Shown here piece by piece: positions 30,085-35,542 of a stretch of 64,000 bases of DNA. The notes beneath the pieces are model-generated. The model was not told the origin of the DNA. It did not search any database and worked only from the letters and a program-made list of their open reading frames with translations. The translations under genes and the position numbers were made by a program. Location of the stretch: the NCBI GenBank assembly GCA_009760885.1, contig CM019704.1, positions 14,510,929 to 14,574,928 on the forward strand. Reading direction: 5' to 3'. Position 1 is the first letter of the stretch. Every line of letters starts with the position of its first letter. Source of the DNA: Achatina immaculata (Eukaryota; Mollusca; Gastropoda; Stylommatophora; Achatinidae).

Positions 30085-31420
30085 CACCTTCTCCTCTAGC
30101 GGCTATCATGTTTCTGTTGCCCTATTTCCTCCCCCCCCCTTTTTTTCAAGCACCTGTTTTCCTCCTCTCTCCACCTCTTCTTTACGATTGGCTCTATCAG
30201 GACACTGCTGGCGAGATTCTTCGGATGCAGCGCGTGGAGTGAAACTCCTCCGGCCAAAGAAAAAAATGAGAAAAAACAATCAGGGTTGCCGTGCGGCGCG
30301 AATATGAAAAAGTTATTGAAAGGATAAAGTGAAGCTTACTCGGTATGTCCAGTAGTATCGCGGGGAGAGCTACTCATACCACGGCACCTCTGCTCTAGAG
30401 GCCGGCCACGTCTGATATACACCCATACTGGTGAAATATGCCTAAACCGGCTTAAACCAGGAATGAAACGATGGCTATCCATATTACAGTACCTCCGCTC
30501 TAGAGGTCAGTCACGTCCTAAACACGCCCATACTGGGATAATATGCCTAAACTGGCTCAACCCAGGGGTGAAACTTACTAGTGGGGAGGATTCGTCCTCC
30601 TGGACAAAAACTCTGTCCTGGTCACAACTAGGAAGGGTAGCGGCCACGACCACAAAATGCTGAAGTCGGAGACCCTGGACCAGTGCAATCTAGATAGGCA
30701 ACCACCTCTCACCTGGCGGGGATGTATGCGTTTACTAATCACGCTGAGGTTTTCAGATGAGAAAGTCCAACTCTGGACTGGATGAGCAACCACCTCTCAC
30801 CCGGTGGGGATACAAGGGTATTCTAAAACATGTCGAGGTTTTCGGTGAGAAAGTCCAGCTCTACGCTGGATTGGCAACCACCTCTCATCTGGTAGGGATA
30901 TACTGATATCCAAAAACACGTCGAGGTTTTCTGGTGAGAAAGCTCAACTCTAGATTAAACTGGTGCAACGAAAACCATAGTGTCACGCAATCACGCTTCT
31001 GAGACCCATCGAGAATACAGGCTAAAGCCCTGCGATACTTTGAACCTCTTGTAGTCCTCTCGGGGATCTCATGTGGTCCTTTCGGGGACCACAGGGGACC
31101 ACGGGACCTATCGAGGACCACAGGAGTAAATTCAGTAGGATCACGGGTCGGTCTTAGTGGCAGAAGCGAACAAAGAAGAAGAAGAAGAAGGCTCTATCGG
31201 ATTATCCTGTGTGTGGCCCGAGTGGTCTCTATGCATCTTCTAGTGGACAAGCATTTCTTTGTTTCCTACTTCTGGAGGAGGCCATACTAAGATAAGTTCT
31301 TCCTTTAGTTATATATATCGGACGTTGTATGTTTTTCATTTATACATTCTCACACTTTCTATTCGTTTTTTCTCACTTTACTCACTCCCTCTGCCACTTT
31401 GTAAAACTACACCATACACC
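30085..31420. repeat. Right inverted arm, split by a retroposon
   Basis: Two segments, 30085-30198 and 31199-31420, together match the left arm in reverse. The composite retroposon lies between them and is flanked by duplicated ggctctatc. Confidence 0.75.
30199..31189 (+). mobile_element. Composite retroposon with (GAA)n tail, 5'-truncated copy
   Basis: This 991-bp insertion is flanked by the 9-bp direct repeat ggctctatc (30190-30198 and 31190-31198). The related left arm at 29261-29269 shows the empty site. The element begins inside module M (ctgctggcgagattcttcgg), followed by two B units (cctctgctctagaggccgg), the 65-bp block, three A units (accacctctcacctggcgg / gagaaagtccaactctgg) and a 3' segment rich in gtcctttcggggaccacag. 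It ends caaagaagaagaagaag. It lacks the rRNA-like head present in the longer copy, as expected of incomplete reverse transcription. No protein is encoded. Confidence 0.8.
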
Positions 31421-32833: not shown

Positions 32834-33092
32834 GTTTAAATCAATCGTCTTCATGACCAATCATTATGACATGACGTCTTCTGTATGTCCTGCACATACA
32901 AGGTGTGTCCAGTAAGTAATGAGACATTTTATTCAGCTAATCAGCAGAGCCGGAGGGTGGATTCTCCGGACCTGTAGGTTAGTGCGGGATTTTAGGTAAA
33001 GGGTCAATATCTCGTCATCTGGGTCTGAGCTTTTACAGAGTGCGGATCGCTTGCGAAGTGGACAGCTGTTTAATCGTCACGTAACGGTCAAA

Positions 33093-33281
33093 ATGCAGGA
33101 GTGTCCAGCAGCGATAAGGTTTTGTGTTAAACTTGAAAAATTCGCGACCCAGACGCTTGCTATGGTACATAAAGCCTACGGGAAGGATGCTTTATCGAAA
33201 GTACAAGTGTTTCGGTGCCACAAGACGTTCAACGAAGGAAGAGAGAGCGTCGAGGATGAACAACGCACAGGGCGCCCATTA
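33093..33281 (+). pseudogene. Mariner transposase, N-terminal part
   Basis: From the ATG at 33093 the protein reads MQECPAAIRFCVKLEKFATQ, TLAMVHKAYGKDALSK and HKTFNEGRESVEDEQRTGRP, the paired helix-turn-helix DNA-binding region of mariner transposases. The reading ends at GRPLTS, where the retroposon's target duplication begins. The interruption makes it non-functional. Confidence 0.88.
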
Positions 33282-33289
33282 ACGTCTCA

Positions 33290-34992
33290 TTTCTTCTTCT
33301 TCTTCTTTTCTTCTTCTTCTTCTTCTTTGTTCGCTTCTACCACCATGACCGCACTGTGATCCTACTGAATTTACTCCTGTGGTCCTCGTTAGGTCCCGTG
33401 GTCTCTTGTGTGGTCCCCGAAAGGACCACACGAGATCCCTGAGAGGACCATAAGGGGTTCAGAGTATCGCAGGGCTTTAGCCTGTATTCTTGGTAGGTCT
33501 CTGAAGCGGATTGCGTGACAAAGTGGTTTTCGTTGCACAAGTTTGGTCTAGAGTTGGACTTTCTCACCGGAAGACCTCGACGTATTTAGGATATCAGTGC
33601 ATCCCCGGTAGGTGAGAGGTGGTAGCCCACCTAGGCCAGAGTTGGACCTTCTCACCGGGAAACCTCGACGTGTTTTGAGATACCCGTGTATCACCACCCA
33701 TCCAGTCCAGAGTTGGGCTTTCTCACCGGAAAACCTCAGCGTGATTAGGATATGCAAATATCCCCGCCAGGTGAGAGGTGGTTGCCTATCTAGACTGCCC
33801 TGGTCCAGTGTCTCCGACTTCAGCATTTTGTGGTCGTGGCCGCTACCCTTTCTAGTTGTGACCAGGATGGAGCTTTTGTCCAGGAGGACGAATCCTCGCC
33901 ACTAGTGTCTTTCACCCCTGGGTTGAGCCAGTTTAGGCATATTATCCCAGTATGGGCGTGTTTGGGACGTGATCGACCTCTAGAGCAGAGGTACTGTGAC
34001 ATGCGTAGCCTTCAAGATTCACCCCTGGTGTGAGCCGGTTTAAGCATAATTCACCAGTATGGGTGTATATCAGGCGTGACCGACCTCTAGAGCGGAGGTG
34101 GTATGCCATGTCTAGCCATCAAGTTCCACCCCTTGTGTGTGCTGGTTTAGGCATATTTCACCAGTGTAGGTGTATTTAGGACGTGGGCGGCCTCTAGAGC
34201 AGAGGCGCCGTGGTATGTGTAGCTCTCGCAGCGATACTACTGGACAGACCGATTAAATTTCACTTTATCCTTTCCTTCACCTTTTCATATCGGCGCCGCA
34301 CAGCAACCTTTATTTCTTTTCCGCATTTTCTTCCTTGAGCGAGAGGAGCTTCACTCCACGCGCGGCATCCGAAGAGTCTCGCCAGCAGTGTCTTAACCTC
34401 TGGGACAAGCTGGTTCATGCATTTCACCTGATATGACTGCACTCAGGACGTGGCCGACATCCAGACCAGAGGTGCCGTGATTTGACTGTTTGCTTCGCTT
34501 TATCCTTTCTACCACCTTTTCCGCAGTGGTGCTGCGCGGCAACCCCATTTGCACCTTTCTTCATTAGCCGGGAGGAGCACCGCTCCACGCACGGCAGTTG
34601 AAGAATCTCGCCAGCGGCGGGGTTTTGAACTAATAAAAGCGCTCTTTCCACGAGGGTCGGAGCTTGGTAAGCACGTATTAGCTCTAGAATTGCCACAGTT
34701 ATCCAAGTAGGATCGTGTCATCTAAGGAACCTCGACTGATTTAATGAGCCATTCACGGTTTCACCGTGAGACAGTGTGAACTTAGACATGCATGGCTTAA
34801 TCTTTGAGACAAGCATATGACTACTGGCAGCATCAACCAGATAGCTTTCTTCACCGAACCTGAGTCGGATATCTACCGACAGACCGACGCGGGGCAAGGG
34901 AGACAGCGCTCTGCTCAGAGCGGATCCCTTTCGACCCCGGCGGCGTTTCACTTCCTTTAATTGGCGGGCGCGGCCGGCGGCTCTCTCTGCTC
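33290..34992 (-). mobile_element. rRNA-headed composite retroposon, long copy
   Basis: This ~1.7-kb insertion in the mariner is bounded by the direct repeat ttaacgtctca (33279-33289 and 34993-35003). On the minus strand the order is: GC-rich leader (34992-34843); 18S rRNA-like 5' end (34842-34621); module M (34620-34495); a B unit; a second M (34395-34250); three B units spaced 107 bp (cctctagagcagagg at about 34189, 34082 and 33975); the 65-bp block; three A units (agagttggactttctcaccg at 33550, 33639 and 33709 on +); a 3' segment; and a (GAA)n tail (33290-33335). No long protein is encoded. Target duplications, a simple-repeat tail and a 5'-truncated sibling at 30199 indicate LINE-type retrotransposition. 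Whether the rRNA head is a Pol I-transcribed leader is inference. Confidence 0.82.
34621..34842 (-). rRNA. 18S rRNA 5' end, ~220 nt (partial, inside retroposon)
   Basis: The minus strand reads ctggttgatgctgccagtag, catatgcttgtctcaaagat, taagccatgcatgtctaagt, gtgaatggctcattaaatca, gataactgtggcaattctag, agctaatacgtgcttaccaa and aagagcgcttttattagttc, the highly conserved first ~200 nt of animal 18S rRNA. One change is visible in a near-universal stretch (gatGctgcc for gatCctgcc). After ttcaaaacc the conserved sequence stops and module M begins, so most of the 18S gene is absent. The ~150 nt upstream are GC-rich and probably represent 5' external transcribed spacer. Confidence 0.92.
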
Positions 34993-35003
34993 TTAACGTC
35001 TCA

Positions 35004-35412
35004 CACTTCCAACAATGCGATAAGATGAAAGCGGTTTTGTACTCTGACCGACGTCTGAGTCTTAGATTGATAGCAGATCAAGTGGGACTTCCAAAATCCA
35101 TTGTGCATGAAATCGTCACGAAAGAACTGCACATGCCCGGAGATCGCCAACAACTGGGTTCTTCACCACGACAATGCGCCGAGCCATGCGTCGCTGCTAG
35201 TGAGAGAGTTTCTGCCGAAACAAACAATGGCAACGCTGTGCCAACCTCCCTATAGCTCGGACTTGGCCCCGACTGACTTCTTTTTGTTTCGTCGGCTCAA
35301 ATCAAGCTTGAAAGACCACCATTTTGGGACTGTTATTGATGTGCAAGCTGCCGTGACGAGTGCTTTGAAGAAGATCCCTGTTCAAGACTTCCAGGCGAGC
35401 TACGACGCGTAG
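35004..35412 (+). pseudogene. Mariner transposase, C-terminal parts
   Basis: After a one-base shift the frame resumes as MKAVLYSDRRLSLRLIADQV and GLPKSIVHEIVTKELHM. The segment that should hold the first catalytic Asp is deleted. The next frame continues with WVLHHDNAPSHASLLVREFL (second Asp in HDNAPSH), YSSDLAPTDFFLF (third Asp) and QDFQASYDA plus stop. Loss of the first catalytic residue shows the copy was defective independently of the retroposon insertion. Confidence 0.88.
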
Positions 35413-35542
35413 CAGAACTGCTGGCAACGGTGTACTGACGATCAGTGATATTATTTCGATGAATTTTAAGTATATGTAAGTATATCTTAAACAAATGGAA
35501 TTTTATGGAATCAGTTTCATTACTTACCAGGCACACCTTGTA

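What the first reader, a model, noticed from the sequence alone, without database searches (positions are those of the whole stretch)
33290..34992. A retroposon whose head is pre-rRNA leader plus the 5' end of 18S rRNA
Seen: a ~1.7-kb insertion inside a mariner transposase, with an 11-bp direct repeat (ttaacgtctca) at both ends and a (GAA)n tail at the end opposite the rRNA. Its 5' end (minus strand) is a GC-rich ~150-nt leader followed by ~220 nt of conserved 18S start, then non-rRNA modules. Known: SINE heads are usually tRNA, 7SL or 5S derived, and rRNA-headed ones are rarely reported. Inference: the element could begin at or near the pre-rRNA transcription start and so may use a Pol I-type promoter or be a template-switch chimera that became mobile.
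Basis: partly seen in the sequence, partly recalled or inferred. Interest (0 to 1): 0.88.

Follow-up and report, generated by a model that had tools for sequence, protein, structure and literature searches.

The report
Ribosomal-RNA precursor fused to a retroposon
The stretch is one of hundreds of insertions in this animal genome in which a common non-coding retroposon was copied together with the front end of the ribosomal RNA precursor, apparently because the copying enzyme jumped from one RNA to the other, so the insertions may record where precursor molecules begin and break.

Summary
The window copy (33290-34992, minus strand) has an 11-bp target-site duplication, a (GAA)n tail, a 1.33-kb non-rRNA body, 223 nt of 18S start and a 149-nt leader. 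It is a 5'-truncated member of a dispersed set. Fuller copies run about 340 nt further upstream and mostly start at one nucleotide (32 of 49) or near +59 (11 of 49), as if at the ends of an RNA: probably the pre-rRNA start and an ETS cut (inferred). It does not look like a mobile family with an rRNA head. The 18S breakpoint differs between copies (31 positions in 48 loci), while the body side is usually one point (58 of 72), the foot of a strong hairpin in the element's native form. A third of copies share the window's breakpoint (18S nt 218-224), but their bodies do not cluster on a tree, so it reads mainly as an acceptor hot spot. Best explanation: the LINE enzyme stalls at the hairpin and jumps onto (pre-)rRNA. 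Template-switch chimeras are known; the number, the spacer-containing Pol I precursor and the fixed points on both sides make this a new variant. True rDNA, the partner LINE and RNA data were not seen.

The parts
32899..35540 (+). mariner-like DNA transposon that was hit by the insertion
   Evidence: similar inverted ends and transposase-like reading frames in both flanks; Pfam weak
33279..33289 (.). target-site duplication, copy beside the tail
   Evidence: also found by the systematic search
33290..33328 (-). (GAA)n tail, 3' end of the element
   Evidence: sequence
33290..34620 (-). retroposon body, 1331 nt, with internal 107-nt and other repeats; no homology to rRNA
   Evidence: its start pattern occurs 10,340 times in the genome
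34609..34620 (-). body start, the point that joins rRNA, native hairpin head or target DNA in other copies
34621..34843 (-). 18S rRNA nt 1-223
   Evidence: (Rfam)
34844..34992 (-). 3' part of the 5' external transcribed spacer; truncated here, 488 nt from the fixed 5' end in fuller copies
   Evidence: contiguous with complete 18S and ITS1 in L089+L079
34993..35003 (.). target-site duplication, copy beside the rRNA head

Best explanation
The insertion is one of many chimeric retrocopies made by template jumping of a LINE-type reverse transcriptase. SHOWN: bipartite copies (5' part of pre-rRNA, then retroposon body, then GAA tail) lie at dispersed sites within one target-site duplication; 5' ends are mostly at two fixed points; the rRNA breakpoint is variable; the body breakpoint is mostly fixed. 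INFERRED: (1) the enzyme starts at the (GAA)n tail of the body RNA by target-primed reverse transcription; (2) it often stalls at the foot of a stable hairpin that separates the body from the element's native 5' head, or reaches the 5' end of that head; (3) there it either stops (headless copies) or jumps, with 0-3 shared or a few extra nucleotides, onto pre-rRNA or a fragment of it; (4) it runs to that RNA's 5' end (pre-rRNA start, or an ETS cut near +59), and the product is integrated. The window's breakpoint (18S nt 218-224) is a preferred landing site, perhaps a frequent RNA 3' end.
For: TSDs enclose the whole chimera in 26 of 38 copies with both ends readable, 0.5 expected from shuffled pairs. 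5' ends: 32 of 49 at one nucleotide, 11 of 49 at positions 55-61. 31 junction positions in 48 loci. Body side: 58 of 72 unique loci at the body start (56 by script plus L021 and L024 by reading), 2 at the second repeat module, 3 in the native head, 9 inside the body. The body start is the foot of a hairpin in native-headed copies, -17.5 kcal/mol against -7.5 for shuffles. In 29 body starts read without regard to rRNA, 12 had the native head, 14 unrelated DNA, 3 had 18S. Serial jumps: L078 is rRNA 6-708, rRNA 1-266, native head, body, with 708 joined directly to rRNA position 1. Hot-spot copies do not cluster on the body tree. Non-LTR enzymes are reported to jump between templates (PMC8857657; PMC3414825).
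Against: Shared microhomology is not clearly above a rough expectation, and 18 of 49 parsed junctions carry 1-8 unexplained nucleotides. The hot-spot group clusters somewhat on the head tree (6 of 500 shuffles as low), so some copies may share an origin. The body tree is poorly resolved and holds three long rows (L069, L017, L032). Head and body divergence are similar in median (4.3 and 4.2%) but hardly correlated (rho 0.20, p 0.14, 55 copies). 12 of 38 copies gave no TSD by the rule used. The partner LINE was not identified, no rDNA unit or RNA data was seen, and TSS and +59 are not mapped.
Confidence: 0.66

Rival explanations
1. Body copies sit inside rDNA units at many positions. Pol I reads through them and makes one RNA (ETS, part of 18S, body), which is then retroposed from the body's GAA tail. 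No jump is needed.
For: Explains why the rRNA part is sense, spacer-containing and 5'-complete, and why the body start is fixed, since headless bodies often begin there. No rDNA array was seen, so resident insertions cannot be excluded.
Against: Needs separate rDNA insertions at dozens of positions. A single amplified resident copy at the hot spot predicts clustered bodies, which were not seen. It does not explain rRNA position 708 joined to position 1 in L078, or the rRNA-rRNA joins of L065 and the C17 group. Hot-spot joins vary in the extra bases and in what is joined (L048, L055, L016).
Confidence: 0.16
2. An RNA ligase joins rRNA fragments to the body RNA before reverse transcription; the enzyme copies a ready-made chimera.
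For: Mostly blunt joins (0-1 nt overlap in 26 of 49 parsed) and fixed ends fit; RtcB ligation is listed among proposed routes for LINE-1 chimeras (PMC13174262, section 17).
Against: The join of rRNA position 1 in L078 would need a ligatable end on what is probably a triphosphate 5' end (general knowledge, not tested). Extra nucleotides in 18 of 49 joins fit polymerase additions better.
Confidence: 0.12
3. One reading: one rRNA-headed chimera became a source and copied itself.
For: 16 of 48 loci share the breakpoint 706-712; mild clustering on the head tree; loci L069 and L051/L052 repeat one junction, though these look like local duplications.
Against: Many breakpoints; no clustering on the body tree; hot-spot copies split 13 T to 13 C at a body site; the copies read begin at or after the presumed start and so lack an upstream promoter.
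Confidence: 0.05

Closest known systems
LINE-1 chimeric retrocopies with U6, U3, 5S, 28S rRNA, tRNA and others in human (Buzdin and colleagues, recalled, paper not held; Law and Burns 2026, PMC13174262, outline, passages and section 17 seen)
   Same: A foreign RNA fused in sense to the 5' side of a retroelement within one TSD; recurrent breakpoints; template switching proposed. Their list includes 18 28S/LINE-1 insertions.
   Different: Here the acceptor is the Pol I precursor with its 5' spacer, copied to a fixed 5' end; the donor is a GAA-tailed non-coding element with a hairpin at the jump point; the motifs occur hundreds of times in one genome. 18S had no mention in that paper's main text.
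R2 template jumps in Drosophila onto U12 snRNA and tRNA, and R2/R1 SIDEs (PMC3414825, passages)
   Same: Jumps in vivo from a non-LTR template to another cellular RNA.
   Different: Those sit in 28S genes and depend on co-transcription there; these are dispersed.
5S rRNA-headed SINE HaSE3 sharing body and tail with tRNA-headed HaSE1 (PMC3272025, passages)
   Same: An rRNA joined to an existing SINE body; template switching proposed as origin.
   Different: Described as a family with one head; here the head differs in length from copy to copy and no self-copying is shown.
28S rRNA-derived SINEs (mentioned in passages of PMC13174262, and a listing; details recalled)
   Same: An rRNA as SINE head.
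   Different: Different rRNA, no variable breakpoint recalled; not compared here.

Membership tests
chimeric retrocopy made by template switching | two RNAs joined in sense inside one target-site duplication | tested here: met
   26 of 38, shuffled mean 0.5
chimeric retrocopy made by template switching | 5' part runs to an RNA 5' end | tested here: met
   32 of 49 at one nucleotide and 11 of 49 near +59; that these are RNA ends is inferred
chimeric retrocopy made by template switching | breakpoints differ between events | tested here: met
   31 positions in 48 loci
chimeric retrocopy made by template switching | made by an identified LINE | not tested
   partner LINE not searched for by protein; GAA tail only
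SINE family with an rRNA head | copies share one head-body junction by descent | tested here: not met
   31 junctions in 48 loci; shared-junction copies unclustered on the body tree, somewhat clustered on the head tree
SINE family with an rRNA head | internal Pol III promoter in the head | not testable with these tools
   no promoter assay; the rRNA head is a Pol I transcript by origin
R2/R1-type element or SIDE | inserted at a fixed site in rRNA genes | tested here: not met
   dispersed sites with different TSDs

The most novel reading that the evidence does not exclude
Nascent or processing pre-rRNA is a regular second template for this retroposon, which implies that its reverse transcription takes place where ribosome precursors are. 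The genome then holds hundreds of single-nucleotide records of germline pre-rRNA ends: its start, an ETS cut near +59, the 18S 3' end plus a few nucleotides, and a frequent break near 18S nt 218-224.
Probability: 0.4. Interest if true: 0.85.

Novelty: new variant of a known kind. Interest (0 to 1): 0.7.

Why it matters
It shows a Pol I precursor, spacer included, captured by retroposition again and again in one genome, with both breakpoints open to interpretation: a hairpin in the donor and a hot spot in the acceptor. That gives a natural experiment on template jumping by LINE enzymes, a possible way to read pre-rRNA start and processing sites from an assembly alone, and a warning that rRNA-like sequence with ETS need not be rDNA. 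It also shows a step by which new SINE heads could arise.

Tried and rejected
Ribozyme at the body start (it too would fix the body's 5' end): Rfam at a relaxed threshold over window 34200-34700 gave only a snoRNA match at E 3.9, and the native-headed loci L027 and L028 gave none at gathering threshold. Not excluded; the hairpin explains the point as well.

tRNA-like native head: ARAGORN found none in L027 nor in the native head alone.

Microhomology as the driver: overlaps of 0, 1, 2, 3 nt in 12, 14, 1, 4 of 49 parsed junctions, and 1-8 extra nt in 18; 49 of 72 loci could be parsed, and hot-spot copies weigh on the count. No clear excess.

Real rDNA in the assembly: an 18S 3'-end pattern gave 11 places, of which 10 were read: the two perfect ones (L079, L080) are themselves chimeras, L081 and L086 are divergent, the C17 ones are rearranged. 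A 5.8S pattern gave 11 places, none read. So I saw no intact unit, and do not claim there is none. The Rfam search of the genome did not complete.

Protein coding: ORFs over the element are 60-102 aa and overlap in many frames; none followed up.

Host: I suspect a land snail from the 18S and the genome size. This is recall; one search did not settle it.

Literature: eight answered searches listed no paper that I recognised as reporting 18S/ETS-retroposon chimeras; the library is open-access only. PMC2718515 was seen in passages.

Full report
WHAT IS THERE. The window copy is as described: TSD at 33279-33289 and 34993-35003, (GAA)n tail, body to 34620, 18S 34621-34843, leader 34844-34992, inside a mariner-like element (weak by Pfam). 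A search of the window's own assembly (1.65 Gb, 145 contigs, unnamed) scored 40 of 14,069 candidates and listed 50 matches, the best at 87-100% and many full-length. A head-only query listed 40 places for 40 scored of 1,862 candidates, on many contigs. Module M is therefore not part of 18S, and the junction is shared by other loci.

THE HEAD VARIES IN LENGTH. In nine loci examined, the sequence after the window's junction point continues as ordinary 18S for 126 to 968 nt and only then joins the body. I built an rRNA reference from L002, L013 and L079: position 1 is the recurrent 5' end, 18S runs 489-2336 and ITS1 to 2690. The window copy spans about 339-711. L089+L079 is one copy with complete ETS, complete 18S and 354 nt of ITS1 before the body; I saw no clear TSD there.

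FIXED 5' ENDS. A 37-nt ETS pattern (reference 319-355) found 284 places, reversed control 0. I read 50 loci, covering 51 of its 67 perfect matches (L029-L058 given by the tool, L059-L078 fetched); pieces without ETS 319-355 are missed by design. L052 repeats L051. Of the other 49, 32 start at GTCAGCC, 11 at positions 55-61 and 6 elsewhere. The start motif occurs 805 times, control 0; the 100 places listed show no array, one close pair. What most of the 805 join was not read. TSDs were found in 26 of 38 copies with both ends readable, mean 0.5 when ends were shuffled between loci. I read position 1 as the pre-rRNA start and +59 as an ETS processing site. Neither is mapped.

VARIABLE rRNA BREAKPOINT, MOSTLY FIXED BODY BREAKPOINT. 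In 48 of the 50 loci (L043, without a simple junction, and L052 dropped) there are 31 junction positions; 16 loci lie at 706-712, that is 18S nt 218-224. All 72 unique loci span 112 to 2690 (this larger set was partly found with the window's own junction and is biased to it). On the body side 58 of 72 begin at (C)CGCTGYTGGCGAGA (56 by script, L021 and L024 by reading), 2 at the second repeat module, 3 in the native head, 9 inside the body.

WHY THAT POINT. Copies without rRNA can carry a native head that ends in a hairpin (GGTAGATGAG...CTCATCTACC) whose foot is the body start; its energy is -17.5 kcal/mol against -7.5 (s.d. 2.3) for 300 shuffles. The body-start pattern occurs 10,340 times, control 0. 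I read upstream of 29 places on contig C1, hand-picked from the 100 perfect matches listed (30 asked, L106 misplaced): 12 native head (L108 with a deletion), 14 unrelated DNA, 3 18S. For 9 of the 14 I fetched a 231-nt stretch where the tail should be: 3 gave a repeat touching the body start (L105, 12 nt; L097, 9 nt, tail not in view; L094, A/G-rich), 6 gave none, mostly because the tail was missed. So insertions often end at the hairpin foot, and chimeras start from the same point. Some of the 14 could be chimeras with other RNAs; this was not tested.

ONE FOUNDER OR MANY? On a tree of bodies (61 chimeras and 4 others; 11 of 72 loci left out for lack of a comparable body) the 26 hot-spot copies need 22 changes, shuffled mean 20.6, 418 of 500 shuffles as low: no clustering. 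The tree is poorly resolved and has three long rows. Hot-spot copies split 13 T to 13 C at a body site, others 22 to 13. A short ETS variant occurs in 2 of 22 parsed hot-spot copies (L003, L008) and 0 of 22 parsed others; L089, outside that table, has it too by reading. Against this, the head tree (53 of 66 rows) shows some clustering, 13 changes against 17.7, 6 of 500 as low; rows that end before 711 have missing columns, which may contribute. I conclude many events, perhaps with small lineages. Head and body differ from their references by medians of 4.3 and 4.2%, with weak correlation (rho 0.20, p 0.14, 55 copies).

SERIAL JUMPS. L078 reads rRNA 6-708, rRNA 1-266, native head, body, with 708 joined directly to GTCAGCC. 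A different donor, ending at the rRNA start, thus landed beside the hot spot, which suggests that the hot spot belongs to the acceptor. In the C17 group the 18S 3' end plus a few ITS1 nt is joined to ETS position 61; these loci are near-copies and may be one event.

MECHANISM. Best: TPRT from the GAA tail, stall at the hairpin, jump to (pre-)rRNA, run-off at its 5' end. B. mori R2 enzyme jumps between templates and needs non-templated addition for it (PMC8857657, passages); jumps in vivo are reported for R2 (PMC3414825, passages) and template switching is a proposed route for LINE-1 chimeras (PMC13174262, section 17). Of 49 parsed junctions 31 have 0-3 shared nt and 18 have 1-8 extra nt. Read-through from rDNA, RNA ligation and self-copying are weighed in their sections.

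NOVELTY. Kind known, variant new: a Pol I precursor with its spacer, hundreds of places, fixed points on both sides. I recognised no earlier report in eight answered searches of an open-access library, which cannot exclude one.

Noticed in passing
window 30201-31189 (+): A second copy of the body, without a head and starting near its second repeat module, lies about 2 kb away, with GGCTCTATC on both sides.
   Followed up: partly
L082-L085, L087, L088 (contig C17, about 10.19-10.75 Mb): A cluster of near-copies on both strands in which the 18S 3' end is joined to ETS position 61 and then 18S start plus body.
   Followed up: partly
contig C4, 23502355-23514505: Four head matches spaced 4.04 kb apart, so a local tandem array of one chimera.
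   Followed up: no
L064, L065, L043: L064 repeats rRNA 1188-1231; L065 holds several rRNA pieces and a ~140-nt insert with inverted ends; L043 has body in the opposite direction between rRNA pieces.
   Followed up: no
L108: The native head is joined to the body start with the hairpin region missing, as if the enzyme had skipped it.
   Followed up: no
11 places of the 5.8S pattern: Eight of 11 dispersed 5.8S-like matches share one substitution (GAGCGC for GAACGC); origin unknown.
   Followed up: no
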